DNA of 36,834 nucleotides from positions 1 through 36,834 of the forward strand of contig DAIDKO010000075.1 in NCBI GenBank assembly GCA_027450005.1, written 5' to 3'. Below the pieces are notes generated by a model. The model saw nothing but the letters and a program-made list of their open reading frames with translations, did not search any database and was not told the origin of the DNA. Every line of letters starts with the position of its first letter. Position 1 is the stretch's first letter. The position numbers and the translations under genes were made by a program. Origin of the DNA: Rhodanobacter sp. Lineage in GTDB: Bacteria > Pseudomonadota > Gammaproteobacteria > Xanthomonadales > Rhodanobacteraceae. Shown here in pieces: positions 1 to 12,848 of this stretch.

Positions 1-617
1 ATGCCCGCCCCGCTGGCCCGCATCAGGTTGTGCGTGACGAGCGCCGCCTCGAACGGACTGCGGTGACCGGGCGCGAGCGTGCCGTTCAGATAGCCTCCGT
101 CCACCACCACCCACGGTTCGTTGAGCGTGCTCCAGTACGGCACGCGATCGTCCAGCGCCCTGAACATCGTCGCGGCGTACTCGGCGAACCAGTGCGCGAT
201 GTCGCGGTTGAGCCAGCCGCCGCGGTCGTCCAGCGCCGCCGGCAGGTCCCAGTGGAACAGCGTGACGTTCGGCGCGATGCCGTTTTCCAGCAGCTCGTCC
301 ACCAGTCGCGAATAGAAGTCCAGCCCTTTCGCGTTGACGCGGCCGGTACCCTCGGGCAACACGCGCGCCCAGTTCACGCTGAAGCGGTAGCTGCCGAGAC
401 CCAGCGCGCGCATCAGCTGCACATCCTGCCTGTAGCGCCGGTAGTGGTCGCAGGCAATGTCGCCGTGGTCGCCGTTTGCCATCATCCCAGGCGTGTGCGC
501 ATAGCGCTGCCAGATGCTGGGACCGGCGCCGTCCGCCAACGGCGAACCCTCGACCTGGTAGGCGGAAGTGGCCGCGCCCCAGAGGAAGCCGTCCGGAAAG
601 CGGTAGCGTCGCGTCAT
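1..617 (-). CDS. GH1 family beta-glucosidase, N-terminal part (runs off left edge)
   Basis: This is the first 205 residues of a glycoside hydrolase family 1 enzyme; the rest lies outside the window. The protein opens MTRRYRFPDGFLWGAATSAY, the classic GH1 start, followed by YQVEG and a GLGSYRFSVNWARVLPEG stretch. The acid/base glutamate motif TLNEPW falls at about residues 164-169 (Glu167), which is the usual place. The nucleophile motif (ENG) would be in the missing half. No signal peptide is seen, so it should act in the cytoplasm and hydrolyse beta-linked di- or oligosaccharides to glucose. It is divergent from the sugar ABC ATPase across a 146-bp gap that holds a perfect match to a LacI-family operator. 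That places it in the same regulon as the transport genes to its right. The family call is firm; the linkage preference is inferred from neighbours only. Confidence 0.93.
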   Translation of the reverse strand, partial: MTRRYRFPDGFLWGAATSAYQVEGSPLADGAGPSIWQRYAHTPGMMANGDHGDIACDHYRRYRQDVQLMRALGLGSYRFSVNWARVLPEGTGRVNAKGLDFYSRLVDELLENGIAPNVTLFHWDLPAALDDRGGWLNRDIAHWFAEYAATMFRALDDRVPYWSTLNEPWVVVDGGYLNGTLAPGHRSPFEAALVTHNLMRASGAG

Positions 618-654
618 GGATTCCAAAACTCTCGAATGCCGCACTGCGGCTTGA

Positions 655-668
655 TGTAACCGTTTACA
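655..668. promoter_or_regulatory. LacI-family operator in the bglucosidase/ATPase divergent gap
   Basis: TGTAACCGTTTACA fits the LacI-family palindrome TGWAANCGNTNWCA at all 11 constrained positions and is centred on CG. It lies 38 bp upstream of the GH1 start and 95 bp upstream of the ABC ATPase start, so one regulator could control both. The regulator is likely the LacI protein encoded at 11731-12786, whose own upstream region carries similar boxes. Confidence 0.7.
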
Positions 669-763
669 TGCCGAGAATAGCCGAACGCCGTCTCTGGATG
701 CACGCCCTTGCCCATGACAGCGCTAACCGTATCGCGACAATCCTCACGGAGCGCACAACACCG

Positions 764-1858
764 ATGGCCACTGTCAGTCTCGACCACGTGCGCAAGATCT
801 ATCCCAATGGCCAAGTCGGCGTGGTCGGCGCCAGCTTCGACATCGCCGACGGCGAACTGCTGGTGCTGGTCGGCCCGTCCGGCTGCGGCAAGACTACGTT
901 GCTGCGCATGATCGCCGGGCTGGAAAGCATCAGTGCAGGCACGCTGCGCATCGGCGACCGCGTGGTGAACGACGTAGCGCCGAAGGATCGCGACATCGCG
1001 ATGGTTTTCCAGAACTACGCGCTCTACCCCCACATGACGGTGGCCGAGAACCTCGGCTTCGGCCTGCGCCTGCGTGGCATGCCGCGGGCGGAAGTCGCGC
1101 ATCGCGTGGGCGAGGTAGCGCGCCTGCTGGAACTGGATCAGCGGCTGGATGCACGCCCCGCCGCGCTGTCCGGCGGCCAGCGGCAGCGCGTGGCGCTGGG
1201 CCGCGCGATGGTGCGCCAGCCCGCTGTGTTCCTGCTCGACGAGCCGCTGTCCAACCTCGACGCGCGCTTGCGCCTTTCGATGCGCGTGGAGATCGCACGG
1301 CTGCATCGCCGCTTCGGCACCACCATGGTCTACGTCACGCACGACCAGATCGAGGCGATGACGCTGGGGCAGCGCATCGTGGTGTTCGACCAGGGCGCGA
1401 TTCAGCAGATCGATACGCCGATGGGACTCTACGAACGCCCCGCCAACCTTTTCGTCGCCGGCTTCCTCGGTAGCCCGGCGATGAACCTGCTGCGCGGCAC
1501 GCTTCATGCCGACCATGGCCTCGCGCTGGCGACCGCCGCTGGCAAGATCCCGCTCGGCGCACCACCGCAAGCCGCCGCGCTCGCCGGCTGGCACGATCGC
1601 GAAGTGGTGCTCGGCGTGCGACCAGAAGACCTGCGCCCGCTCGCGGCGAACGATCCAGCCGTCGCTTTCGAAGCACAACTGGAAGTGCTGGAACCGGTGG
1701 GCAACGAGGTCTTCCTCAACCTGTGTCACGGGGATTCGGCGCTGGTCGCGCGCATACCGCCGGGGATCGCCTGCGTACCGGGCGAGACGGTGCGGCTTGG
1801 CATCACCGCGCAACGGCTGCACTTCTTCGATCCGGGGGATGGAGCGCGGATCGGTTGA
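764..1858 (+). CDS. Sugar ABC transporter ATP-binding protein (MalK/UgpC type)
   Basis: A 364-residue ATPase that would power the two permeases encoded at 2587-4292. Visible motifs in order are Walker A GPSGCGKTT (residues 37-45), Q-loop FQNYALYPHMTV (from residue 82), signature LSGGQRQR (135-142), Walker B LLDEP (157-161), D-loop SNLDAR and the switch histidine in VTHDQIEAM (His193). After residue ~235 comes the C-terminal regulatory TOBE/MalK-type domain (GFLGSPAMN, then VLGVRPEDL), typical of importers for sugars and glycerol phosphate. I chose the ATG at 764 because alignment to the family begins there; an open frame continues upstream but crosses the operator and has no family similarity. 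It faces away from the GH1 gene and is separated from the permeases, which are on the opposite strand, by a large palindrome. A separately encoded ATPase serving more than one transporter is common in this family. Confidence 0.93.
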   Translation: MATVSLDHVRKIYPNGQVGVVGASFDIADGELLVLVGPSGCGKTTLLRMIAGLESISAGTLRIGDRVVNDVAPKDRDIAMVFQNYALYPHMTVAENLGFGLRLRGMPRAEVAHRVGEVARLLELDQRLDARPAALSGGQRQRVALGRAMVRQPAVFLLDEPLSNLDARLRLSMRVEIARLHRRFGTTMVYVTHDQIEAMTLGQRIVVFDQGAIQQIDTPMGLYERPANLFVAGFLGSPAMNLLRGTLHADHGLALATAAGKIPLGAPPQAAALAGWHDREVVLGVRPEDLRPLAANDPAVAFEAQLEVLEPVGNEVFLNLCHGDSALVARIPPGIACVPGETVRLGITAQRLHFFDPGDGARIG

Positions 1859-1936
1859 GGCGCACCTGTCTACTGTCGTGTGCGCGCATTGAACGCTTTT
1901 TGTTTTGCAGTACCGCAAAGCACAAAGCAATTTCGA

Positions 1937-2545
1937 GCGTCCGCCGGCGCCCGAGTCACTTTCTGTTTGCGTGGCCAGAGAGAGAGTAACCCAAGAGAAA
2001 GGCCACCCCGATGGCGCGCCCTCCCGGTCTCCTGCCCTGCGGGTTCGCAGACGGGCGGCGGGGCTTTTCGACGGCACCTCCTGTGCCGGCGAAAAACTGG
2101 CTCGAATCCCTGCGCGCCATCCTGCAGACTTTCCGCCACCCGTCCGCCGCGCCACAGGGGCCCCGGGTAGAGCAGCGCGCTCCCGGCGCGCAGAAGCAAA
2201 AGCACCCCACCCCGGCCTTTCTCCGCACGCAGGGGAGGGAGATGACCTGCAAGCTTGCGATGCGCTGCTTTTGCAGTTGCTTCTGGCGCGCGCGATGCGC
2301 GCCTGCTCTGGTGGGCACCCTGGGCAGCGGAGAGGCGGGGACGACAAGGCCGCGCAGCGGGCGAGGCCATAGCGGGTATCGCCTTTTCGACCGGGCAGGA
2401 GCCCGGCCGAAAAGCCCGGCAACGCCTCACGGACTTGCCGGGCACGATGCCCGGCAAGCGCCAACCGGGGTGTCGCTTTCTCTTGGCTACTTCTCTTTTG
2501 GACAAGCAAAAGAGAAGTAGCTCGGCCGCCGGCAGGCGGACGAAA
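1937..2545. repeat. ~610-bp imperfect palindromic intergenic element
   Basis: The 728-bp gap between the ATPase and the permease gene contains no credible gene. It is mostly one large imperfect inverted repeat. The left end, around CGAGTCACTTTCTGTTTGCG (1952 onward) and CCAAGAGAAAGGCCACCCCG (1991-2010), returns in reverse complement at 2461-2530. Further inward, GGGCTTTTCGACGGCACC (left arm, ~2058) matches the reverse of 2370-2415. Inside that, GAGCAGCGCGC...GCAGAAGC (2170-2200) matches the reverse of 2280-2312. The centre lies near 2235. The right arm also holds a perfect 14-bp hairpin, CTACTTCTCTTTTG (2487-2500) with its complement at 2507-2520 and a 6-nt loop. Reading frames inside it give only low-complexity peptides. 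It could be a miniature mobile element or a long structured convergent terminator region. Confidence 0.75.
2487..2520. terminator. Perfect 14-bp hairpin in the convergent gap
   Basis: CTACTTCTCTTTTG, a GACAAG loop, then CAAAAGAGAAGTAG. It sits between the 3' ends of the ATPase gene (+) and the permease gene (-), so it could terminate or stabilise either transcript. Neither side has a clean run of T after the stem, so it may be simply part of the repeat element rather than a true terminator. Confidence 0.4.
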
Positions 2546-2586
2546 CCACTCTGTCGCTGACGACAAGCCAAAGGGCAAATACGCAC

Positions 2587-3408
2587 TCACCCCTTCACGC
2601 TCCCCATCAGCAACCCATCCAGATAATGCCGCTGCATGGAAAGGAACAGCACCAGCACCGGCAGCACGGTGAGCACCGAGCCGGCCATCATCTGCTCGGT
2701 GCCTTCGGTGTGCTCGCGCGCCAACGAAGCTAGCCCCAGCGGCAACGTGTAGTGGCCCTGCCCGGTCAGCTCGATCAGCGGCCACATGAAGTCGTTCCAT
2801 GCGGTGAGGAAGGTGAGGATCGCCAGCGTCGCCACCACCGGCCGCAGCAGCGGCAATATAATGCGTACAAAGATGTGCAGCTCGCCGGCGCCGTCGATGC
2901 GCGCCGCCTCCAGCAACTCGTCAGGCAGGCCACGCGCATACTGGCGCACCAGGAAGATGCCCAACACCGACGCCATGCCCGGCAGCATCACGCCCACATA
3001 GGTGTCCACTAGACCGGCGTACTTGAACATCAGGAACAGCGGCAGCATCGCTACCTGCGCCGGCACCACCAGCAGGCCGAGCAGCGCGCGGAACAGCCGC
3101 TCGCGTCCGGCGAAGCTGAGCTTGGCGAAGGCATAGCCTGCCATCAGGTTAAACATCAACGACACCAGCGCGATGCCAGCGGAGGTCACCAGGCTGTTGA
3201 GCAGGTAGCGCGCCATGCCCGCCTGCTCGAACAGCTGCCGGTAATTACCCAGCACCGGATGCGCCGGCCACAACGGCGGCGGCAAGGCGTTGGACGTGCC
3301 TGGCGGCATGAACGAAACTGCGAGCATCCACAGCAACGGGAACAGCGCCACCGCGGCGGCGCCCAGCAGCAGGCCGTTGATCAGCGCCTTCGCCAGCCGC
3401 GGATTCAT
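2587..3408 (-). CDS. Sugar ABC transporter permease (MalG/UgpE type)
   Basis: A 273-residue inner-membrane permease of the carbohydrate uptake type-1 (CUT1) family. It starts MNPRLAKALINGLLLGAAAV, and about six hydrophobic segments follow. The cytoplasmic EAA loop, which docks on the ATPase, is clear: EAARIDGAGELHIFVRIILP near residues 168-187. The C-terminal MQRHYLDGLLMGSVKG is a typical MalG-like tail. The start overlaps the stop of the preceding permease by four bases (ATGA), so the two are translationally coupled and likely made in equal amounts. It is the last gene of the leftward run and ends just before the palindromic element. Substrate cannot be told from sequence alone; the neighbouring hydrolases suggest a glucose oligosaccharide. 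Confidence 0.93.
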   Translation of the reverse strand: MNPRLAKALINGLLLGAAAVALFPLLWMLAVSFMPPGTSNALPPPLWPAHPVLGNYRQLFEQAGMARYLLNSLVTSAGIALVSLMFNLMAGYAFAKLSFAGRERLFRALLGLLVVPAQVAMLPLFLMFKYAGLVDTYVGVMLPGMASVLGIFLVRQYARGLPDELLEAARIDGAGELHIFVRIILPLLRPVVATLAILTFLTAWNDFMWPLIELTGQGHYTLPLGLASLAREHTEGTEQMMAGSVLTVLPVLVLFLSMQRHYLDGLLMGSVKG

Positions 3409-4292
3409 GCCTCGTCACCAGTCTGCCCACTGCGCGACAGCCGCAGCATCGCCGCGGTCGCCGCGAACATCACCAGGAACAGCACGAACGCCTCCGCCGT
3501 GGCGACGCCGAGGTTCCACCATTGGAAGCCGTCCTCGTACATCAGGTACAGCACACTGGTGGTGCTTTCCAGCGGGCCGCCGTCGGTCATCACGTAGGGC
3601 TCGGCGAACAGCTGGAAATAACCCGATACGGTGAGGATGGACACCATCAGCAGCGTCGGCCCGAGCATCGGCAAGGTGATGTGGCGGAACTGCCGCCATG
3701 CCGACGCGCCGTCGATGCGCGCCGCTTCGTAGAGCTCGCCGGGGATCGCCTGCAGCCCGGCGAGTAGGATGATCATGTTGTAGCCGAAGTTCTTCCACAC
3801 CGCGAACAGGATGATGGTGGGCATCGCCCAATGCGGGTCGCCCAACCAGTCCACCGGGTGGATGCCAAGCATGCCGAGCAGGTGGTTGGCCCAGCCATAC
3901 TTGGTATTGAACAGGTAGCGCCACACCACCGCCGTCGCCACCGCGGTGGTCACCACCGGCGCGAACAGTGCGGTGCGGAAGAACGCCTTGCAGCGCGCCA
4001 TTGGCGAGTGCAGCAGTAGCGCCGCGCCCACCGAAGCGGCCAGCGACAGCGGCACCCCCGCCACCACGAAGTAGAACGTATGGCCCAGCGCGGCCCAGAA
4101 CTGCGGCCGGTGCAGCAGCATCCAGTAGTTACCCAGCGCCACAAAGCGCAGGTTGTGCAGGTCGGCCAAGGCATAGAGGTCGTAGTCGGTGAAGCTCAGC
4201 GCCAGCGCACCGAGCACCGGCAGCAGGAAGAACACCGCTAGCACCAGCAATGCCGGCGCGAGGAACAGCCACGCGGCGCGCGAGCCGGTCAT
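3405..4292 (-). CDS. Sugar ABC transporter permease (MalF/UgpA type)
   Basis: A 295-residue inner-membrane permease, partner of the MalG-type protein. It begins MTGSRAAWLFLAPALLVLAV with a membrane segment at once, and shows the EAA loop EAARIDGASAWRQFRHITLP followed by MLGPTLLMVSILTVSG. The FAEPYVMTDGGP stretch near the C-terminus is characteristic of CUT1 MalF/UgpA-like subunits. I chose the ATG at 4292 because it overlaps the stop of the solute-binding protein gene (ATGA) and puts the first membrane helix at the N-terminus; an upstream frame extension only reads through the binding-protein gene. It is short compared with E. coli MalF, lacking the large periplasmic loop, as is normal for UgpA-type subunits. 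Confidence 0.93.
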   Translation of the reverse strand: MTGSRAAWLFLAPALLVLAVFFLLPVLGALALSFTDYDLYALADLHNLRFVALGNYWMLLHRPQFWAALGHTFYFVVAGVPLSLAASVGAALLLHSPMARCKAFFRTALFAPVVTTAVATAVVWRYLFNTKYGWANHLLGMLGIHPVDWLGDPHWAMPTIILFAVWKNFGYNMIILLAGLQAIPGELYEAARIDGASAWRQFRHITLPMLGPTLLMVSILTVSGYFQLFAEPYVMTDGGPLESTTSVLYLMYEDGFQWWNLGVATAEAFVLFLVMFAATAAMLRLSRSGQTGDEA

Positions 4293-5572
4293 TGCGACGA
4301 CGCCTGCCTGCCAAGCAGCGCGCGCCGCTTGGCCAGAATCGCGTCGGCCCGGCTGTCCATCTCCGCCGCCGCCTGGTCCACCTTCAGCTCGCCAGCCACC
4401 GCACGCGCGGCGACCTGCTGCATCATCACCGCGATGCGTTCCCACTCGGGCACGGCCGGCGCGGACTTGACGCGTTCGAGTTGGTCGCGGAACGCTTGCA
4501 TGGCCGGATCATGCAGCAGCAGCGGGCTGCTCCAGCTGCTGCGCCGCGGCGGAATGTCGCCGGTAAGCCGGTAGAAGCGCTGCTGCACGCGTGGCTGCGA
4601 GAGGTATTCGATCAGCGCCCATGCCTCGCGCCGATGCTTCGACGCGCGGAACACCACCAGGCTGGAGCCACCCGCGAGGCCTGCGCCCGGACCCTCCGGC
4701 CCCGGCAGCGGCGCCGTGGCCCAGTCGCCCTGCTCGCTCGCCGGCAGGCGCTTGCGGAACTCGGCGACGTTCCATGGCCCGGACAGATAGAACGCATACA
4801 CGCCGCGGCCGAACTCGTCCCACGGATCGCTCACCTCCACGTTGGTGACGTCCGGTGCCTGCCGAAGGCGGAAAGTATCGACGTAGAAGCCGAGTGCGCG
4901 GCGGAATCCTGGGCTCTCGAAATTGCCGCGGGTGTCGTCGTCGCGCAGCAAGGGGTCGGGTTGCTGTAGCGCCAGCGAAAGCAGTTGCTCGTACTCGTTG
5001 GTCGGCAACAGGATGCCGTAGACCTTGCGCGCCGGATGGCTGAGCGCGGCCAGCATGCGCCGCCACTCGGCCCAGTCGCGCGGCGGCGCGTCGAAGCCCG
5101 CCTGCTTCAGAAGGTCGCTGCGGTAGAACAGCAGGCGCGTATCCACGTACCAGGGGATGCCATACAACTGGCCGTTAGTGAGATTGGTGGCCCAGATGCT
5201 GGCGAAGTAGTCGGACGCCATCACCGTCGACGAGGCGGCGACGCGCCGCTGCAGGGGGGCCAGCGCATGCAAGGCCACCATTTCGGGCAACCACGTGTTG
5301 CCGAGCTGCGCCATGTCCGGTGCGGTGCCACCGGCAATCGCGGTGAGCAGCTTCTGGTGTGCCGCGCTCAGCGGCAGTTGCTGCACCTCGACGTGGATGT
5401 CCGGATGGGCCCGTTCGAAATCCGGCAACAGGCGGGTGACGGCATCGCCTTCCGGACCGAACGTCCAGAACACCAGGGCGTCGTCGCGTCTGCCGCTGCA
5501 AGCGGTAAGGCACAACGCGGCAGCGATGGACAGCCATCGCCACCACGCCACATACCCTGCCCGCAGCTTCAT
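4289..5572 (-). CDS. Extracellular solute-binding lipoprotein of the sugar ABC importer
   Basis: A 427-residue binding protein of the family-1 (MalE/UgpB-like) class. A basic start and hydrophobic stretch end in the lipobox LTAC (Cys25), so it should be a lipid-anchored periplasmic protein. The mature part starts with DALVFWTFGPEGDAV, continues with HPDIHVEVQQLP and GGTAPDMAQLGNTW, then has LYGIPWYVDTRLLFYRSDLL, all standard landmarks of this class. It would hand oligosaccharide that has entered through the TonB-dependent receptor to the two permeases. It lies 10 bp after the GH144-like hydrolase and overlaps the next permease by four bases, so it is in the same operon. Family is clear; ligand unknown. 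Confidence 0.92.
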   Translation of the reverse strand: MKLRAGYVAWWRWLSIAAALCLTACSGRRDDALVFWTFGPEGDAVTRLLPDFERAHPDIHVEVQQLPLSAAHQKLLTAIAGGTAPDMAQLGNTWLPEMVALHALAPLQRRVAASSTVMASDYFASIWATNLTNGQLYGIPWYVDTRLLFYRSDLLKQAGFDAPPRDWAEWRRMLAALSHPARKVYGILLPTNEYEQLLSLALQQPDPLLRDDDTRGNFESPGFRRALGFYVDTFRLRQAPDVTNVEVSDPWDEFGRGVYAFYLSGPWNVAEFRKRLPASEQGDWATAPLPGPEGPGAGLAGGSSLVVFRASKHRREAWALIEYLSQPRVQQRFYRLTGDIPPRRSSWSSPLLLHDPAMQAFRDQLERVKSAPAVPEWERIAVMMQQVAARAVAGELKVDQAAAEMDSRADAILAKRRALLGRQASSQ

Positions 5573-5582
5573 CCCGGTTACC

Positions 5583-7046
5583 TCAGTGGTCGTCCAGCCA
5601 GCCGCCGGCGAAGCCCGCCCGCTGCAGGCCGCGGCGGATATACGGGTTCTTCTTCATCACGCTCCATACCAGGCCACTGCGCCAGTTCTCGATCATCAGC
5701 AGGATCGGCCCCTGGTCGATGCCCAGCTGCTGGTTGTCGGCCCAGCCGAAGCCGGGATAAGTGTGGCCATACACCGGTGCGCTATGGAAGCTAGGGTTGA
5801 ACGCGTCGACGAAACCGTAGCGGTTGTAGATGTACTGGCCGTAGCGCTGCTTCATCGTCATAAGCGCAGGCACCACGATGGACGGCGCGAATGCGATGGA
5901 GCCACCCGCCGCGGTGGGTGCGATGGTGCCGTCGTCGGTAATGTTTTCCAGCCCGGCGCCACGCGCCATGTAGCCGCTGAAGCGGCGCACGCCCTGCGGC
6001 AGGTTCTCGGTGACGTCGCCCGGTCCGTCGCTGGCGGTCAGGCCCCATACGTCGGCGCCGTAGCCGGTCCAGCGGCCTGGATTGGCGATGGCGTAGGCGC
6101 GCTGCGCGTAGGTGGCCAGGCGCCCGTTCTCGGCGTAATCGAGGTCGTGCGCGCGCCCCCACGCATCGCGGATGCCGCGGAAGTCCACCCACGACTCGGT
6201 GTACTGGTGGCCGAACAGCGGGCCAAAGTCGAGGAAGGTGTAGCCCTCGAAAGTCCCCCACTGCTTCGGATAGGTAGAGCACCATGCCGCCCACGCGTCC
6301 GCATCCACGGGATGCGTGGGCGAGCCCAGCGCGAGCAGGTAGACCAACTTGCCTTCGTCGTAGCCTTTCCAGTCGGATGGAATGAACTGGCCACCCGGCG
6401 TCCAGCCCATGCTGATGAGCGGCTTGCGCACCTGCATCCACGGCCAGTCGACGGCGCGGTACAGCCGGTCGGCCATCTGGCGGATCTCGCGCTCCTGCGG
6501 CGTGTTGCGGTCGTAATAGCTCTCCGCGAACAGCACGCCACCCATCAGCAGGGTGGTGTCCACGCTGGACAACTCCACCCAGCGGCCGTAGCGGCGACCG
6601 GTCTGCATGTCGAGGAAGTGGTAGAAGAAACCGTGGAAGCCGGCAGTGTCGTCTTCGCTGTCGTTCTGCGGGGCTGCCGCGAAGAAGCGCAGCGTGGTCA
6701 GGGTGCGCTGGACCGCCTGCGCACGCGTGATGTAGCCGCGCTCGACACCGATGCCGTAGGCGGTGAGGCCGAAGCCGACGGCGGCGATGGAGGAGAAGGT
6801 GTGGTTCGGCCACGAATCGGGCACCAGGCCGGTATACGGGTCGGCGCTCTGCCAGAACCAATCGAAGGTGCGATGCTCCAGGTCGTCGATGAAGGCCTTC
6901 TGTGCGGGCGTCAGCTTCCGGTACGTAAGGGTATCGGGCCGCGGTGGCACGACCGCCTGCGTCGCCTGTAACGGCATGCCGGCGACGAATACCATCAGGA
7001 CGGCGGCCGCGAACAGTTGCAGGCGGCGCCACGGGAATGAAGACAT
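5583..7046 (-). CDS. Secreted glucoamylase-fold hydrolase, GH144-like (putative beta-1,2-glucanase)
   Basis: A 487-residue protein with a signal peptide (MSSFPWRRLQLFAAAVLMVF..., cleavage likely after PLQATQA). The mature body matches what I know of the Pfam glucoamylase-like family PF10091, which contains GH144 endo-beta-1,2-glucanases: FIDDLEHRTFDWFWQSADPY, GLVPDSWP, IAAVGFGLTAYGIGVERGYI, GFFYHFLDM, SDWKGYDEGK, GYTFLDFGPLFGHQY, and the C-terminal DQGPILLMIENWRSGLVW. No lipobox is seen, so periplasmic or secreted. I chose the ATG at 7046 because a CGAGG ribosome site sits 7 bases before it and the signal peptide follows at once. It lies 55 bp after the halogenase gene and 10 bp before the binding protein. 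With the GH1 enzyme it suggests endo-cleavage followed by cytoplasmic beta-glucosidase action. Substrate specificity is an inference; catalytic acids cannot be assigned by eye. Confidence 0.82.
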   Translation of the reverse strand: MSSFPWRRLQLFAAAVLMVFVAGMPLQATQAVVPPRPDTLTYRKLTPAQKAFIDDLEHRTFDWFWQSADPYTGLVPDSWPNHTFSSIAAVGFGLTAYGIGVERGYITRAQAVQRTLTTLRFFAAAPQNDSEDDTAGFHGFFYHFLDMQTGRRYGRWVELSSVDTTLLMGGVLFAESYYDRNTPQEREIRQMADRLYRAVDWPWMQVRKPLISMGWTPGGQFIPSDWKGYDEGKLVYLLALGSPTHPVDADAWAAWCSTYPKQWGTFEGYTFLDFGPLFGHQYTESWVDFRGIRDAWGRAHDLDYAENGRLATYAQRAYAIANPGRWTGYGADVWGLTASDGPGDVTENLPQGVRRFSGYMARGAGLENITDDGTIAPTAAGGSIAFAPSIVVPALMTMKQRYGQYIYNRYGFVDAFNPSFHSAPVYGHTYPGFGWADNQQLGIDQGPILLMIENWRSGLVWSVMKKNPYIRRGLQRAGFAGGWLDDH

Positions 7047-7101
7047 TGCAAACCTCGGATGGATGTAACGGAGCGGTGCCATGCCGGCGCCGCGGCAAGA
7101 T

Positions 7102-8625
7102 TCAGGCGGCCTGCATCGCCGTTGCCGGGCAGACCTTGTCGATGAACGCCTGGTGCAGGGGCATCGCCTCCACGCACGAATTCACCACTTGGCGCACGCT
7201 GGCCATGAAGCCGGCGAGGTCCTTCTGGGGCATCTGGTCCACCAACGGGTGGTAGCCCCGCGGCACGATACGCTGGCCAAGCATCACCTGCACCCAGCTC
7301 GGCGTGGAGAACATCTCCTCGCCATCGCGATAGAAGCGGCCGCTGTCGCGGAACAGGCGGATGTACTCGTCGAGCTGCTGCGGCACCGCCATAGTGCGGC
7401 AATGGTTCCAAAACGGCGTGTCCTCGCGTTCGGTCGCGTGGTAATGCAGGATCAGGAAATCACGGATGCGCTCGTACTCGAAGCGGGAGCGCGCGTTGTA
7501 GCGGTCGATCAGCACCGGGCTGAAATCCCGCTGCGGGAACATCTCCAGCAGGCGCGCGATGCCGGACTGGATCATGTAGATGCTGGTGGACTCCAGCGGC
7601 TCAAGGAAACCGGCGGCCAGGCCGAGCGCCACCACGTTGCGGTTCCAGGCCCGCTTGCGCGCGCCGGTGGTGAAGCGCAGCAGTTTCGGGTCGCCCAGCG
7701 GCTTGCCATCCAGGTTCGCCAGCAGGATCGCGGCAGCTTCGTCGTCGCTCATGTGCGCGCTGCAGTAGACGTGCCCGTTGCCGGTGCGGTACTGCAGGGG
7801 AATGCGCCATTGCCAACCGGCCGGACGCGCGGTCGAGCGCGTGTATGGCGTGAGTTGCGCCACCCGCTCGCAACCCACCGCCACGGCGCGGTCGCACGGC
7901 AGCCAATGCGAGAAATCGTGGTAGCCGGTGTGCAGGGTCTGCTCGATGAGCAGGCCGCGGAAACCGGTGCAATCGATGAACAGGTCACCTTCGATGCGCT
8001 CGCCACCTTCCATCAACAGCGCCGATACGAAGCCGTCGTCCAGCCGAAGTTCCACGCTGGCGATCTTGCCCTCGGTACGTCGTACGCCACGCTGCTCGGC
8101 GTATCGACGCAGGAACCGCGCGTACAGGCCGGCATCGAAATGATAGGCGTAGGCAACGTTGGCCAGCGGCGAGTTGGCCGGCACATCGGTGGCGGAGGGC
8201 ATGAACTTCCCGCGCGGCGCGGCCACCGTGTTGAGCGAATAGGCGCCGATGTCCTCGGCCAGGCCCAACTGCTTGGCCTTGATCCAGAACTGGTGGAACG
8301 GCAGCAAGCTGATGGCGTGGCCGATCTCGCCAAAACCGTGCACATAGCTGTCGCCGAGCCGACCCCAGTCGTTGAACTGGATGCCGAGCTTGAAGGTGCC
8401 CTGGGTGTTGCGGACGAACTCGACGTCGTCCACCCCGAGCAGGTCGTTGAACAGCTTGAGATGCGGCACCGTGCCTTCGCCCACACCGACGGTGCCGATT
8501 TCCTCGGACTCCACCAGCCGGATCGAGCAATCGCCGCCCAGCACCTTGGAGAAGGCCGCAGCTGCCATCCATCCGGCGGTGCCGCCGCCGGCGATCACGA
8601 TGCGTTTGATGCGCATGTCGGTCAT
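7102..8625 (-). CDS. Flavin-dependent tryptophan-halogenase-like protein
   Basis: A 507-residue FAD-dependent halogenase homologue. The nucleotide-binding motif is GGGTAGW (residues 13-19). The family signature WxWxIP is WQWRIP at 271-276. The lysine that forms the haloamine or guides HOX in PrnA-type enzymes is Lys79 in GTFKLGIQF, and the active-site Glu-Ser pair is in EPLEST (Glu345, Ser346), so the catalytic set looks intact. I chose the ATG at 8625 because a GGAG lies at proper distance and this start numbers the lysine exactly as in PrnA; an ATG 15 bases upstream is less likely. The gene sits between a TonB-dependent receptor and a glycan hydrolase. Such pairs recur in Xanthomonads, where some of these enzymes brominate indoles in vitro, but the natural role is unknown. 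No flavin reductase gene is adjacent. Confidence 0.9.
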   Translation of the reverse strand: MTDMRIKRIVIAGGGTAGWMAAAAFSKVLGGDCSIRLVESEEIGTVGVGEGTVPHLKLFNDLLGVDDVEFVRNTQGTFKLGIQFNDWGRLGDSYVHGFGEIGHAISLLPFHQFWIKAKQLGLAEDIGAYSLNTVAAPRGKFMPSATDVPANSPLANVAYAYHFDAGLYARFLRRYAEQRGVRRTEGKIASVELRLDDGFVSALLMEGGERIEGDLFIDCTGFRGLLIEQTLHTGYHDFSHWLPCDRAVAVGCERVAQLTPYTRSTARPAGWQWRIPLQYRTGNGHVYCSAHMSDDEAAAILLANLDGKPLGDPKLLRFTTGARKRAWNRNVVALGLAAGFLEPLESTSIYMIQSGIARLLEMFPQRDFSPVLIDRYNARSRFEYERIRDFLILHYHATEREDTPFWNHCRTMAVPQQLDEYIRLFRDSGRFYRDGEEMFSTPSWVQVMLGQRIVPRGYHPLVDQMPQKDLAGFMASVRQVVNSCVEAMPLHQAFIDKVCPATAMQAA

Positions 8626-8659
8626 GAAGCGCTCCGGCAAAAAGTCGTTCCGTGGAAAC

Positions 8660-8684
8660 GCCGGGGTGCGCGAGACACCCCGGC
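8660..8684 (-). promoter_or_regulatory. Intercistronic stem-loop after the TonB-dependent receptor
   Basis: GCCGGGGTG (8660-8668) and CACCCCGGC (8676-8684) form a perfect 9-bp stem with a 7-nt loop. It begins 7 bases after the receptor stop and lies before the halogenase start. There is no T run directly after it, so it is more likely an mRNA-stabilising or processing element, or a weak attenuator, than a strong terminator. It would allow much more receptor than halogenase to be made. Confidence 0.6.
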
Positions 8685-8691
8685 TGGTGCA

Positions 8692-11600
8692 TCAGAAGTT
8701 CAGGCCCATCGAGAGCTTGACCGTACGGGGATAACCTGTGATGTCACCCGTGGGGTTGTAGGTCACGACAGGGTTGTAGCTGCCGTTCGCCCCCCAGTTT
8801 TCCAGATAGTTGACGTAGTTGTTCCAGTTGAATGCGTTGATCAGGTCGAAGCGCACGTAGGCATTGAGGTTGCCGTAGAGCTTGAAGTTCTTCGTGGCCT
8901 GGAAGTCCAGGTCGCGGTAGCCGAAGATCTTGCCGCCGATCAGGAAGCGCCCGTTGCCCGGCGGCGCGACCGCCGCCGAACGGCAACCGCTGCCGGCCAC
9001 GCCGCCGCTGTCCACGTTGGTGGCCGGCGCACCGAAGCACGCGAGGTTGATGTCCGGGACCGGCGTGGACAAGGTCAGCTTGGCGCCGAGCGTGAAACCC
9101 CACGGGCCATCCAGCGTGCCGGTCATAACCAGGCGATGCTTGGCGACACCGGACGAGGTGTACGGGTAGTTGCCGATCCACTCGTAGTCGAACGCGTACT
9201 GGTCGGTGGGATTTCCGTTGTCGTTGTTCTGCCGCGTACTCGAATAGGTATACGCGATCGTCGCACCCCAGTGCGATTCCGGCGTATACGGCTTGTTGGC
9301 CGACACCAGCAGTTGGCGGGTGCGCGTCTCCAGCCCGTTGTTGCCGATGATCAGGCTGCCGAAACCGGGGATGCCGTTGCCCCAGGGCTGGCTGCCGTTG
9401 TGCCAGAACGCACCATCGGGGTAACGGTTGCCCAGGGTATAAACCAGGCCATCGTGGCTCTTGATGTACGCCAGCGCTACGCTGGTATTCCAGTCGCCCA
9501 CCTGGTTGCGCATGCCGATGCTGAATTGGTCGGAATACGGCGCCTTCAGGTTGTTGTTGACCAGATCGACTTCCTTACCGGCATTGCTGCCGGATACCAG
9601 GCCCTGCAGGGTCGGGATGTTGAGGTAGGCCGGATTCCAGGCGTAGCAGTTGTTCACGCCAACCGTGCAGGGCATGTCCGGCGTGTTGAAGTACACCGTG
9701 GGCTGCGACAGCGACTGCTTGGTCTGCTCCACCTGCAGCCCCTCGTAGAGGTTGCGGTCGTAGGAGCGGCCGGCACCGCCGAAGATCACGTGCTTCTGGT
9801 CGCCGTTGATGTCGTAGGAGAAGCCAAGGCGCGGCTGCCACTCGTTGGTCTTCGCGTGGCGGTTGTGGCCCGTGCTGATGTAGTCGTTGATGTTCACCCC
9901 CCCCATTGCCAGCGACTGGGCGTAGGTCTGTCCGGCCGGCGCGTTCGGATCCTGCTGCTGGAAGGCCGCCACTACGTCCGCGGGGGTCACGTAGTTCAGG
10001 TAAGACGGCGTCGTCTCGTAGTCCCAGCGCACGCCGAGGTTCAAGGTCAGGTGGTCATTTACCGTCCAGTCGTCCTGGATGTAGGCGCCGAACTGCTTGT
10101 CCGAACTGTTCGCCACCGGGCTCATGCCGGGCGTGGGCGAGCCGAACTGCACCTGGTAAGGGATTGACTCGGTGCCGGCCGACGTCACCGCATAATTGAA
10201 CAGGGCATTGGAATCCCCCGCGTCCTGCGCGGTGAGCTTCACCGCCTTGTACTTGAAGCCGGTCTTGATGACATGGTCGCCGTGCCATTCCAGGTCGTTG
10301 AAGGTTAGGTCGTCCTGGATCGCCGGACCCTTCTGGCCCTTGTTCTGCTGTGCCAGCGGCGAGTTGCCGGTCTGCAGCACGGTAACGTACCGCTGCGCAC
10401 CGGTGAGGGTGTAGCTGTTGCCCGCGCCGAGGGCGATGGGAGTGGGCGAGAAGAACGCGTCCTCGTAGGTCAACTGCAGGCGGTTGAACCAGCTGTAGGC
10501 GCTGTGATCCCAACGCACGTCGACGCGCTTGTCGGTATTGATCGTGTTTAGCCCTGCCGAGGCGGTGAGCACGCCGCCGAGGCCACCGATGGAGGTTTCG
10601 TCGCGGTACTTGCCACTCACCTCCAAGCGGTCGCGCGAGGTGGGCTCGTAGTCGATCTTGCCGAACCAGTCGTTTTCCTTGAACGGCAGGCTTGCTGGGC
10701 CGATCTGCGACTGCACGCTAGCGGGCAGGTAGCTGGCGTAGCCGGTGATGCCCGGCACGACGGTGGTGGGACTGTCGAACTCCTTGCCCTCGTAGGACAC
10801 GTAGAAGTGCGCCATGTCCTTGACGATAGGACCGCCGAAGTCGAAGCCATAGTCCTTCTCGTGCGACGGCGTCTTGTGGTGCGCAGCCCGCTCGGACGGA
10901 GTCTCGGCGCGCATGCGGGTATCGGTGAAGCTGCCGAACACGTCGCCGTGGTATTCGTTCGTGCCCGACTTGGTCTCGGCCGTGATCGCGGCCGAGGAGA
11001 TCTGGTCGTACTCTGCCTTGTAGTTGGATGTGATGACCTTGTATGAGCCAATCGCCAGCTGCGGGAACGGATTTCCCTGACTTGCGTTCTGGCCGGTGAT
11101 GCCACCCGACAGCACGTAGTTCTTCTGGCCGACGCCGTCGATGTAGACGTTGATGTTGCTGTTGGCCTGGGCGCCGGAGCGCAGGCTGGTGTTGCCGTTG
11201 GCGTCACGCGTGAACACCATGCCGGGTACGATGTCGGCGAACTCGAGGAAGTTGCGCGACGCTTCCGGCAAGGCCGCGATGTCGCGCAGCGAGACGATGT
11301 TGCCCACTTCGGAGGTGGTCACCTCCGGCAACTCCACCGCCGTTGCCGACACCGACACGCCGGCCAGTGTCTTGGCGTTGGCCTGCGAGGCCGTGGCGCC
11401 GGTGAGGTCGATCGTGCTGATCGAAGCCACCGCCAGTTGCACCGTCTTCTCCACGCCGGATCCGGTCTGCACCTGGTAGGTGCCTGACGGCAGGCCGACG
11501 ATGGCGAAGCTGCCGTCCTTGCTCGACTGGGTGACGCGTACCAGGCCAGTCGCGACGTTCCTGACGGTGACGCTGGTGTTGGGCGCGGCGTTGCCGCGCA

Positions 11601-11709
11601 ACGTGGCGTCGGATGTCTGCGCCATGACGATGCTTGGCGCGGACGCGAGCATGGCCGCCACGACGGCCGCCGGCAACAAGCGCTTCTTGTATGACTTGAG
11701 ACTACTCAT
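8692..11709 (-). CDS. TonB-dependent receptor, Oar-like, glycan-locus type
   Basis: A 1005-residue outer-membrane active transporter. It has a signal peptide (LLPAAVVAAMLASAPSIVMA, cut about residue 30). Next comes a carboxypeptidase-regulatory-like beta-sandwich (TLRGNAAPNTSVTVRNVATG ... GLPSGTYQV, ~32-105), as in Oar-type receptors. A plug domain follows (~130-240, with LPEASRNFLEFADIVPGM and NINVYIDGVGQKNYVLSGG), and then a long beta-barrel ending SMGLNF with the terminal Phe typical of outer-membrane barrels. A GGAGGGGAG ribosome site stands 4 bases before the ATG, predicting strong translation. It lies 21 bp after lacI and before the halogenase and hydrolase, so it should import the oligosaccharide across the outer membrane with TonB-ExbBD energy. 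Ligand not determinable from sequence. Confidence 0.95.
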   Translation of the reverse strand: MSSLKSYKKRLLPAAVVAAMLASAPSIVMAQTSDATLRGNAAPNTSVTVRNVATGLVRVTQSSKDGSFAIVGLPSGTYQVQTGSGVEKTVQLAVASISTIDLTGATASQANAKTLAGVSVSATAVELPEVTTSEVGNIVSLRDIAALPEASRNFLEFADIVPGMVFTRDANGNTSLRSGAQANSNINVYIDGVGQKNYVLSGGITGQNASQGNPFPQLAIGSYKVITSNYKAEYDQISSAAITAETKSGTNEYHGDVFGSFTDTRMRAETPSERAAHHKTPSHEKDYGFDFGGPIVKDMAHFYVSYEGKEFDSPTTVVPGITGYASYLPASVQSQIGPASLPFKENDWFGKIDYEPTSRDRLEVSGKYRDETSIGGLGGVLTASAGLNTINTDKRVDVRWDHSAYSWFNRLQLTYEDAFFSPTPIALGAGNSYTLTGAQRYVTVLQTGNSPLAQQNKGQKGPAIQDDLTFNDLEWHGDHVIKTGFKYKAVKLTAQDAGDSNALFNYAVTSAGTESIPYQVQFGSPTPGMSPVANSSDKQFGAYIQDDWTVNDHLTLNLGVRWDYETTPSYLNYVTPADVVAAFQQQDPNAPAGQTYAQSLAMGGVNINDYISTGHNRHAKTNEWQPRLGFSYDINGDQKHVIFGGAGRSYDRNLYEGLQVEQTKQSLSQPTVYFNTPDMPCTVGVNNCYAWNPAYLNIPTLQGLVSGSNAGKEVDLVNNNLKAPYSDQFSIGMRNQVGDWNTSVALAYIKSHDGLVYTLGNRYPDGAFWHNGSQPWGNGIPGFGSLIIGNNGLETRTRQLLVSANKPYTPESHWGATIAYTYSSTRQNNDNGNPTDQYAFDYEWIGNYPYTSSGVAKHRLVMTGTLDGPWGFTLGAKLTLSTPVPDINLACFGAPATNVDSGGVAGSGCRSAAVAPPGNGRFLIGGKIFGYRDLDFQATKNFKLYGNLNAYVRFDLINAFNWNNYVNYLENWGANGSYNPVVTYNPTGDITGYPRTVKLSMGLNF

Positions 11710-11730
11710 GAACTCCCCTCCAATTGTCAG

Positions 11731-12786
11731 CTAGCGACTCGACGTATGGCGAATCTTCTTGGTTGTGGTGATGGTGGCTCCGCGCCGATGTGCCCCGCAG
11801 GATTCACGCACGACGATGTCGCAGCCGAGCGTGTGCACCGATGCGGCCGAACGCCCGGGGCGGTCCATCAGGTCGGCCAGCAGCTCCATGGCGTTCTTGC
11901 CCAGCTCCGCAATGCGTACGCGCACCGTGCTGAGCGGTGGTGTGACGTAGCGCGCGATCGGGATATCGTCAAAACCGGCCACGGCGACGTCGCCCGGCAC
12001 GGCAAGACCGGCTTCTTTGAAGGCTTGCAGGCAGCCCACAGCCATTGTGTCGTTGGCGGCGAACACCGCCTGCGGACGTATCTTCATGACCAGCAGCTCG
12101 CGACCCGCCACGTAGCCGGACGATTCGCCGAAATCGCCCGCTAGGAGGCGCACCGGCTCGCCCGGCAGGAACTTGGCCATTGCCGCTCGGAATCCCGCCT
12201 CGCGCTGGCGGGCGTCGTAGTTGTCCTTCGGGCCGCCAACGAAGGCGATGCGCTGGTGCCCGATGTCGACCAGGTGTCGCACCATGGCGTAGGTGCCGGC
12301 GAAGTTGTCGATGTTCAGCACGGCATCGGCGCCATTCTTCACGTCGCTGTTGAGCAGCACGATGGGCAGGCCATCCGGCAGGTTGGCTTTCAGGAAAGCC
12401 GCGTCCACGTGCGGCGAGGACAGCAGCACCACGCCATCCACGCGACCCTGCATCGCGCGCAGCGCGGCCGCCGCATCCTCTTCGCCATCGTGCGAACTGG
12501 ACACCAGCAGGTGCAGGCCATGCGAGCGGGCCTCGAGGTCGATACCGCGGATCAGTTCGGAGAAAAACTCGCCGTGCAGGTCGGGCAACAGTGCGCCAAT
12601 GGCGTGCGTGCGCCGGGTAATCAGGCTGCGGGCGGCGCTGTGCGGGACGTAGCGCAGGCGCGCGGCGGCCTCGCGGATGCGTTGCGCAGTGACGGGCGTC
12701 ACGCCGCCACCGCCGTTCAGGGCACGGGACACCGAAGCCACCGAAACCTTGGCTTCGCGCGCAACATCCTTGATGGTCGCCGTCAT
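11731..12786 (-). CDS. LacI-family transcriptional regulator of the glycan locus
   Basis: A 351-residue repressor. The N-terminal helix-turn-helix is TIKDVAREAKVSVASVSRAL (residues 4-23), followed by the hinge helix region RLRYVPHSAARSL. The periplasmic-binding-protein-like effector domain follows: IGALLPDLHGEFFSELIRGI, VDGVVLLSSP, IGHQRIAFVGGP, PQAVFAANDTMAVGCLQA, VAGFDDIPIARYVTPPLSTV. I chose the ATG at 12786 since it is the usual LacI start and has GGAGAG upstream. The frame stays open to 13029, but that extension would cover the candidate operator at 12835-12848 and resembles nothing. It is promoter-proximal in the leftward operon, 21 bp before the receptor gene. It probably represses itself, the import genes and the divergent ATPase/glucosidase pair until a sugar inducer binds. 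Inducer unknown. Confidence 0.93.
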   Translation of the reverse strand: MTATIKDVAREAKVSVASVSRALNGGGGVTPVTAQRIREAAARLRYVPHSAARSLITRRTHAIGALLPDLHGEFFSELIRGIDLEARSHGLHLLVSSSHDGEEDAAAALRAMQGRVDGVVLLSSPHVDAAFLKANLPDGLPIVLLNSDVKNGADAVLNIDNFAGTYAMVRHLVDIGHQRIAFVGGPKDNYDARQREAGFRAAMAKFLPGEPVRLLAGDFGESSGYVAGRELLVMKIRPQAVFAANDTMAVGCLQAFKEAGLAVPGDVAVAGFDDIPIARYVTPPLSTVRVRIAELGKNAMELLADLMDRPGRSAASVHTLGCDIVVRESCGAHRRGATITTTKKIRHTSSR

Positions 12787-12834
12787 TCCCCAGACTCTCC
12801 GCCGGATGGCGCCTCCGGGCGCCGTTGGCGAGAA

Positions 12835-12848
12835 CGTAAACGTTTTCA
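12835..12848. promoter_or_regulatory. LacI-family operator upstream of lacI
   Basis: CGTAAACGTTTTCA matches TGWAANCGNTNWCA at 10 of 11 constrained positions. It is about 50 bp upstream of the lacI start, a position suited to autorepression and to control of the receptor operon that follows lacI. Confidence 0.65.

What the first reader, a model, noticed from the sequence alone, without database searches (positions are those of the whole stretch)
1..12848. Complete two-membrane glycan uptake and degradation locus, probably for beta-1,2-glucan or sophorose-type oligosaccharides
LacI regulator, TonB-dependent receptor, halogenase, GH144-like hydrolase, binding lipoprotein, two CUT1 permeases, ATPase and GH1 beta-glucosidase stand together. 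The enzyme set covers outer-membrane entry, cleavage outside the cytoplasm, ABC import and final hydrolysis. The GH144-like family is known for endo-beta-1,2-glucanases, and a GH1 enzyme could split the sophorose produced. Receptor-driven loci of this family usually use MFS permeases; pairing with an ABC importer is less common.
Basis: partly seen in the sequence, partly recalled or inferred. Interest (0 to 1): 0.72.

Follow-up and report, generated by a model that had tools for sequence, protein, structure and literature searches.

The report
Beta-1,2-glucan scavenging locus in Rhodanobacter
A soil bacterium carries a self-contained gene set, with what looks like its own switch, that very probably imports and digests beta-1,2-glucan, a sugar polymer made by many bacteria; relatives including Dyella and Xanthomonas share it, which suggests what an orphan "maltose-binding" crystal structure really binds.

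Summary
All nine genes are confirmed. "Complete" is wrong for this contig: GH1 is cut by its edge and continues, followed by a GH39 gene, on another contig through an exact 141-bp overlap. The hydrolase is GH144, 53% identical to XcSGL (XCC2207, 8xul), an assayed beta-1,2-glucanase, and keeps the clan's defining residues. New here: (1) the binding lipoprotein's nearest solved relatives are Xac-MalE (3uor, ligand listed as unknown), then the sophorooligosaccharide binder Lin1841, well ahead of the rest; (2) in 12 of 12 evidently Xanthomonas genomes examined, the Xac-MalE gene stands beside the XcSGL gene; (3) ATGTAAnCGnTTACAT at up to two mismatches occurs at two places only in the 2.9-Mb assembly, upstream of lacI and between the divergent ATPase and GH1 genes, and is conserved in relatives. 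Best reading: LacI-controlled scavenging of beta-1,2-glucan by TonB receptor, GH144, ABC importer and GH1. Kindred pathways are published for Ignavibacterium, Listeria and Streptomyces. GH1 linkage specificity and the halogenase's role remain open.

The parts
3..614 (-). GH1 beta-glucosidase, N-terminal 204 codons; no signal peptide seen (by eye); continues on contig C160 (L113, L115) and is followed there by a GH39 gene
   Evidence: PF00232; best NCBIfam model BGL, 314 bits, under its cut-off of 478.5, probably because the protein is a fragment; C160 match and 141-bp exact overlap
654..669 (.). LacI-type operator-like palindrome ATGTAACCGTTTACAT between the divergent ATPase and GH1 genes
   Evidence: a similar site upstream of GH1 in 33 of 42 loci at <=3 mismatches and 39 of 42 at <=4
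764..1858 (+). MalK/UgpC-type ABC transporter ATPase
   Evidence: PF00005, PF17912, PF08402; NCBIfam UgpC subfamily 468 bits, cut-off 432
1860..2586 (.). interspersed repeat between the convergent ATPase and permease genes; not thought to belong to the function
   Evidence: 31 matching stretches in the assembly, the window's own included
2587..3408 (-). CUT1 permease, MalG-like
   Evidence: PF00528
3405..4292 (-). CUT1 permease, MalF-like; overlaps both neighbours by start/stop
   Evidence: PF00528; ATG position
4289..5572 (-). solute-binding lipoprotein (LTAC lipobox by eye), relative of Xac-MalE (3uor) and of Lin1841
5583..7046 (-). GH144 endo-beta-1,2-glucanase (predicted) with Sec-like signal and no lipobox (by eye); frame open to 7082
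7102..8640 (-). flavin-dependent (tryptophan-type) halogenase with GGGTAG, FKLG and WQWRIP motifs; optional part of the locus
   Evidence: PF04820; motifs (their meaning is recalled); found in 27 of 61 related loci
8692..11709 (-). Oar-like TonB-dependent receptor, no plug domain found by Pfam
   Evidence: PF25183, PF00593, PF13620
11731..12786 (-). LacI-family regulator
   Evidence: PF00356 and PF13377
12834..12849 (.). operator-like palindrome ACGTAAACGTTTTCAT, 47 bases upstream of lacI
   Evidence: a similar site upstream of lacI in 54 of 56 loci at <=3 mismatches

Best explanation
A dedicated scavenging system for exogenous beta-1,2-glucan. The Oar-like TonB-dependent receptor brings glucan or large fragments into the periplasm. 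The secreted GH144 cuts it endolytically to sophorooligosaccharides. The lipoprotein captures these and the MalFGK-type importer takes them into the cytoplasm, where GH1 releases glucose; a secreted GH39 beyond the contig edge may help. LacI holds the lacI-to-permease operon and the divergent ATPase and GH1 units at two matching operators and lets go when a sugar of the pathway is present. Shown by sequence: the genes, the family of GH144 with its catalytic residues, kinship of the SBP with Lin1841, the operator-like pair, co-inheritance. Inferred: substrate, localisation, order of steps, LacI binding and induction. Unknown: halogenase role, GH1 linkage preference.
For: GH144: best solved relative XcSGL 8xul (E 8e-167; 53.2% identity over 466), which has 3.85 U/mg on beta-1,2-glucan alditol and none detected on the 12 other glycans tested (xylan not examined; PMC12102758, section 4 part 1). 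Clan residues E, F, Y and the proposed base D are kept in the window and in 73 of 73 loci rows, the rows extracted from 81 loci. SBP: a profile of the window and 20 locus SBPs scores Xac-MalE 691 bits, Lin1841 311, the next 166. In 15 genomes of the genus the SBP is in the 12 that have this GH144 clade and in none of the 3 that lack it. Operators: two sites only in the assembly, none for the reversed control pattern; 54 of 56 and 33 of 42 in related loci against 0 of 16, 0 of 54 and 0 of 58 upstream of leuA, SBP and permease G and 0.8% of 4000 random windows. Foreign substrate: two single-contig relatives (G002, G012) carry GH144 and SBP but no MdoG match and no GH94-type domain match.
Against: No biochemistry on any protein of this organism. 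GH1's best solved relative is a beta-glucosidase (6jfp) with no known tie to this glucan; no alignment to the beta-1,2-specific SGR_2426 was made, and its entries (8KAP, 9U98) are not among the 60 rows shown. 9 of 15 genus genomes carry GH94-type domains in frames of about 1300 or 2900 aa, possibly cyclic glucan synthases, so recycling of own glucan is possible there. The own assembly is 87.7% complete, so absences in it are weak. Ligand contacts of the SBP could not be checked. The operator pattern was taken from the window's own two sites, and the related loci are not independent; 2 of 56 lacI and 9 of 42 GH1 upstream regions lack a site at <=3 mismatches. The GH39 resembles beta-xylosidases, which does not fit a pure glucan diet. 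XcSGL shares its branch with paralogues of unknown activity.
Confidence: 0.82

Rival explanations
1. Recycling of the cell's own osmoregulated or cyclic beta-1,2-glucan rather than scavenging of foreign glucan.
For: GH94-type domains in long frames occur in 9 of 15 genomes of the genus.
Against: The own assembly has one PF10091 match only, no MdoG match and no PF06165 match; G002 and G012, each one contig, have GH144 and SBP without MdoG or PF06165 matches. A TonB receptor is not needed for a periplasmic glucan. The own assembly is incomplete, and unknown synthases cannot be excluded.
Confidence: 0.12
2. A maltose or trehalose uptake locus, as the names MalE, MalF and MalG given to such ABC genes suggest.
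For: [quoted passage not shown] the ATPase and permeases are of the MalFGK/Ugp type.
Against: The same paper lists its specificity as unknown. The SBP profile scores Lin1841 at 311 bits and the acarbose/maltose binder GacH at 157. The SBP gene sits beside a close relative of a verified beta-1,2-glucanase in 14 of 14 Xanthomonas-type loci examined. None of the nine window genes is an alpha-glucosidase.
Confidence: 0.05
3. The true substrates are short beta-1,2-linked glucosides, such as flavonoid sophorosides, with glucan a side substrate.
For: Sophorosides are named as natural beta-1,2-linked glucosides (PMC11842490 and PMC12369401, passages); the GH39 and the halogenase hint at compounds other than pure glucan.
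Against: The authors of PMC12102758 report the enzymes of this clan that they studied as endolytic and judge that glucose must fill subsites -3 and +2, so short sophorosides should be poor substrates for GH144.
Confidence: 0.1

Closest known systems
Xanthomonas locus with XCC2207 (XcSGL) and the gene of Xac-MalE (3uor)
   Same: Same order LacI, receptor, GH144, SBP, two permeases in X. sacchari and in 11 of 12 evidently Xanthomonas genomes examined; the twelfth shows no receptor match. XCC2208 is described as a receptor without a canonical plug, as here (PMC1790865, passage).
   Different: There the GH144 starts with a lipobox-like signal (by eye, X. sacchari), a protein of more than 1000 aa with an F5/8 type C domain follows, and no ATPase or GH1 match was found in the stretches fetched.
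Ignavibacterium album beta-1,2-glucan cluster (PMC8861115, passages)
   Same: Proposed path: TonB-dependent transporter, periplasmic GH144, ABC importer with a Lin1841-like binding protein.
   Different: Two GH144 genes, a GH94 homologue and the GH35 transferase; one passage lists a putative GH3 beta-glucosidase, another says that no beta-glucosidase homologue is in the cluster. The passages seen name no LacI, halogenase or GH1.
Listeria innocua lin1839-1841 and Streptomyces griseus SGR_2422-2427 (PMC12369401, passages)
   Same: ABC importer with sophorooligosaccharide-binding protein (shown in Listeria, expected in Streptomyces); in Streptomyces a GH1 and an SGL-family gene beside it.
   Different: No receptor is named in the passages; the SGL relative is GH193 in Streptomyces; Listeria uses GH94 and GH3.
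CUT loci of Xanthomonas, e.g. sux (PMC1790865, passages)
   Same: TonB receptor, degradative enzyme, inner-membrane transporter and regulator together.
   Different: sux has a single sugar transporter gene, suxC, not an ABC set; XCC2208 is mentioned once in that main text and not there as part of a CUT locus (supplements not seen).

Membership tests
GH144 | Sequence family and phylogenetic place with characterised GH144 enzymes | tested here: met
   XcSGL is the best solved match and lies in one 70-row branch with the window, away from CpSGL (quick tree, SH-aLRT only; the branch is unresolved inside and holds seven paralogues). Both are GH144 by PMC12102758.
GH144 | Clan residues E239, F286, Y367 (XcSGL) and acidic residue at CpSGL E142 | tested here: met
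   Window E243, F290, Y371, D175 in the 499-aa frame; the same in 73 of 73 loci rows
GH144 | Hydrolysis of beta-1,2-glucan | not testable with these tools
   Known for XcSGL by the paper
Sophorooligosaccharide-binding ABC protein (Lin1841 type) | Closer to Lin1841 than to alpha-glucoside binders | tested here: met
Sophorooligosaccharide-binding ABC protein (Lin1841 type) | Conserved ligand contacts and binding of Sop3-Sop5 | not testable with these tools
   PMC5995521 not held
beta-1,2-specific GH1 (SGR_2426 type) | Gln229 and Trp291 equivalents | not tested
   No SGR_2426 sequence was obtained; the best solved relative of the L032 homologue is 6jfp
CUT locus | TonB receptor, degradative enzyme, inner-membrane transporter and regulator in one locus | tested here: met
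   conserved in relatives
CUT locus | Induction by its carbohydrate | not testable with these tools
   No expression data; operator-like sites only

The most novel reading that the evidence does not exclude
The Lysobacterales hold a private regulon (one LacI, two operators) for eating the beta-1,2-glucans of other bacteria, and the crystallised orphan Xac-MalE is its sophorooligosaccharide-binding protein, not a maltose or trehalose binder. The halogenase, present in under half of the loci, would be tuned to this substrate or to a molecule that enters through the same receptor.
Probability: 0.55. Interest if true: 0.55.

Novelty: new variant of a known kind. Interest (0 to 1): 0.42.

Why it matters
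Beta-1,2-glucans are symbiosis, virulence and osmoregulation factors of many bacteria, and few uptake pathways for them are known. Here three lines of sequence evidence (enzyme, binding protein, operator-like sites) agree on one pathway across a bacterial order. It gives a testable ligand for a structure listed as of unknown specificity, and it makes the question of who eats these glucans in soil and on plants open to genetics in harmless strains.

Tried and rejected
Maltose/trehalose reading rejected on the SBP profile and gene context. Whether GH1 is an SGR_2426-type enzyme could not be decided. NCBIfam gave no hit for GH144. Of 94 plasmid records with a GH144 relative I opened the surroundings of one only, X. 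sacchari; a near-identity search with 4.4 kb of it found that record alone. The large F5/8 type C protein of relatives was folded (13 rows, mean pLDDT 77.9) and searched: the first rows are dextran dextrinase, an exo-beta-D-arabinanase, GH94 phosphorylases and GH116 enzymes, TM by query length 0.43 or less in the 50 rows shown of 1331, so its family stays open. The stretch at 1860-2586 is an interspersed repeat.

Literature: 10 searches answered; one of them was mostly off target because 'male' matched the sex. Texts seen in part only: abstract, outline, one passage, section 4 part 1 of 3 and section 12 part 1 of 2 of PMC12102758; passages of PMC12369401, PMC1790865, PMC7676653, PMC13084667, PMC11842490, PMC11228985 and PMC8861115. 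The Xac-MalE and Lin1841 structure papers are not held. That I found no description of this locus rests.
Full report
What was checked. The window is the whole of contig C75 of an assembly of 2,901,613 bases in 164 contigs, 87.7% complete. Its nearest named relatives are Rhodanobacter. Pfam confirms all nine genes of the finding. lacI, receptor, halogenase, GH144, SBP and the two permeases lie on the minus strand with small gaps; the ATPase lies on the plus strand and GH1 diverges from it. The GH1 gene is cut after 204 codons. Its remainder is on contig C160, whose end repeats the first 141 bases of the window exactly, and a GH39 gene follows there.

The hydrolase. The best solved relative is XcSGL (XCC2207, 8xul), E 8.1e-167, against 4.6e-54 for the next. 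Identity is 53.2% over 466 positions by a pairwise alignment, 34.4% to CpSGL and 45-49% to seven paralogues from related genomes. In a quick tree of 85 rows (73 rows from 81 loci, seven paralogues, four PDB rows, the window) XcSGL sits among Lysobacteraceae rows in a 10-row group (support 90) and the window in a 51-row group (support 93); both lie in one branch of 70 rows (support 100) that also holds the paralogues and is unresolved inside. The 12 Bacteroidota rows and the three other PDB rows lie outside it. The program warns of long branches among the paralogues. The residues that PMC12102758 gives as defining the clan, and the acidic residue proposed as base, are kept in the window protein and in 73 of 73 loci rows. 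XcSGL was active on beta-1,2-glucan alditol and on none of 12 other glycans; xylan was not examined.

The binding protein. phmmer ranks 3uor first (E 1.5e-143), Lin1841 second (8.5e-61) and a third sequence at 6.8e-34. A profile of the window SBP and 20 of 62 locus SBPs extracted widens the gap: 691, 311 and 166 bits. [quoted passage not shown] In X. sacchari the SBP gene follows the GH144 gene, and these two proteins have XcSGL and Xac-MalE as first matches. Of 15 genomes of one unnamed genus (g58) matched, I took stretches of 12: in each of the 12 a GH144 94.6-97.5% identical to XcSGL is followed by an SBP 91.5-99.8% identical to Xac-MalE. Two further loci (G299 and X. sacchari) have 88-89% and 75%. 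The two proteins therefore belong to one locus. That Xac-MalE binds sophorooligosaccharides is an inference from this context and from Lin1841.

Conservation. Of 80 named loci (the best 80 of 542 candidates), 61 have the SBP beside GH144; of those, 60 have permease F, 58 permease G, 59 the receptor, 56 lacI and 27 the halogenase within the set distances. Seven loci lack at least one of the first four; five of these are stretches under 13 kb, and in a sixth (L069) lacI is present but further off. 58 of the 61 are Pseudomonadota, with one Gemmatimonadota, one Myxococcota and one unassigned MAG. None of the 15 Bacteroidota loci has the SBP; four other loci (L079, L080, L088, L101) also lack it. 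In the genus, GH144 of this clade and the SBP go together in 12 of 15 genomes and are both absent from 3; two of the three have only the paralogue and one is a small assembly.

Regulation. The palindrome ATGTAACCGTTTACAT lies between the ATPase and GH1 starts, and ACGTAAACGTTTTCAT 47 bases before lacI. At up to two mismatches the pattern ATGTAAnCGnTTACAT occurs at these two places only in the whole assembly, and the reversed control pattern nowhere. The pattern was taken from these sites. In relatives a site with at most three mismatches to the symmetrical form lies within 300 bases upstream of lacI in 54 of 56 loci and of GH1 in 33 of 42 (39 at four), also where the GH1 unit lies kilobases away; upstream of leuA, SBP and permease G it is found in 0 of 16, 0 of 54 and 0 of 58, and in 0.8% of 4000 random windows. 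The loci are related, so these counts are not independent events. The Xanthomonas-type loci mostly show weaker sites (three mismatches) before lacI and before GH144; one of the 14 shows none. Binding by this LacI is inferred.

Source of the glucan. The own assembly has one PF10091 match, no MdoG match and no GH94-type domain match. MdoG has no match in 15 of 15 genomes of the genus; GH94-type domains are present in 9 of 15. G002 and G012, single contigs, have GH144 and SBP without either. Scavenging of foreign glucan is the simplest reading for them; other synthases cannot be excluded.

What remains open. GH1: the full homologue from L032 matches beta-glucosidases of no stated tie to this glucan best. 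The halogenase keeps the FAD, FKLG and WxWxIP motifs in 22 of 24 rows examined, and the other two lack WxWxIP, but nothing links it to a substrate. Relatives carry accessory enzymes: a GH39 in several Rhodanobacter and a few other loci, and in Lysobacteraceae-type and some Rhodanobacteraceae loci a protein of about 1050 aa whose catalytic part has no solved relative by sequence and is predicted as beta-sandwich plus alpha/alpha barrel.

Comparison. The chain receptor, GH144, ABC importer was already proposed for Ignavibacterium, and ABC import plus GH1 or GH3 for Streptomyces and Listeria. This locus is a variant of that kind with its own regulator, its GH1 ending and an optional halogenase. 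In the papers held I found no description of it as a locus.

Noticed in passing
L070:14339-17473 and homologues in L060, L064, L082, L084, L089, L095, L096, L099, L103, L104, L109, L112: Conserved protein of about 1050 aa (CBM11-like and F5/8 type C parts, then an alpha/alpha-barrel region with no sequence match among solved structures and only a marginal Pfam match) after the permeases in Lysobacteraceae-type, Xanthomonas and some Rhodanobacteraceae loci: a candidate new glycosidase of the pathway.
   Followed up: partly
L115:15961-17559 (contig C160 of the same assembly): GH39 gene with a signal-like start right behind GH1, outside the window; nearest solved relatives are beta-xylosidases.
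   Followed up: partly
window 1860-2586: Interspersed repeat, 31 matching stretches in the assembly, its own included.
   Followed up: partly
L033:15453-16850: A frame that reads like a group II intron reverse transcriptase (by eye, not searched) between permease and ATPase of a close relative.
   Followed up: no
G001:C10, G004:C33, G006:C47, G007:C28, G008:C195, G009:C17, G010:C1, G014:C50: A second GH144-like paralogue (43-48% identity) lies next to a frame of about 1300 aa with two GH94-type domains: perhaps a second beta-1,2-glucan gene pair.
   Followed up: no
L112:21027-25305: In X. sacchari the genes edd, pgl, glk and zwf follow the locus, which would suit glucose as its end product.
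   Followed up: no
L043:16793-21000: A second set GH144, SBP and two permeases directly follows the first in one Rhodanobacter MAG: a tandem copy of the locus core.
   Followed up: no
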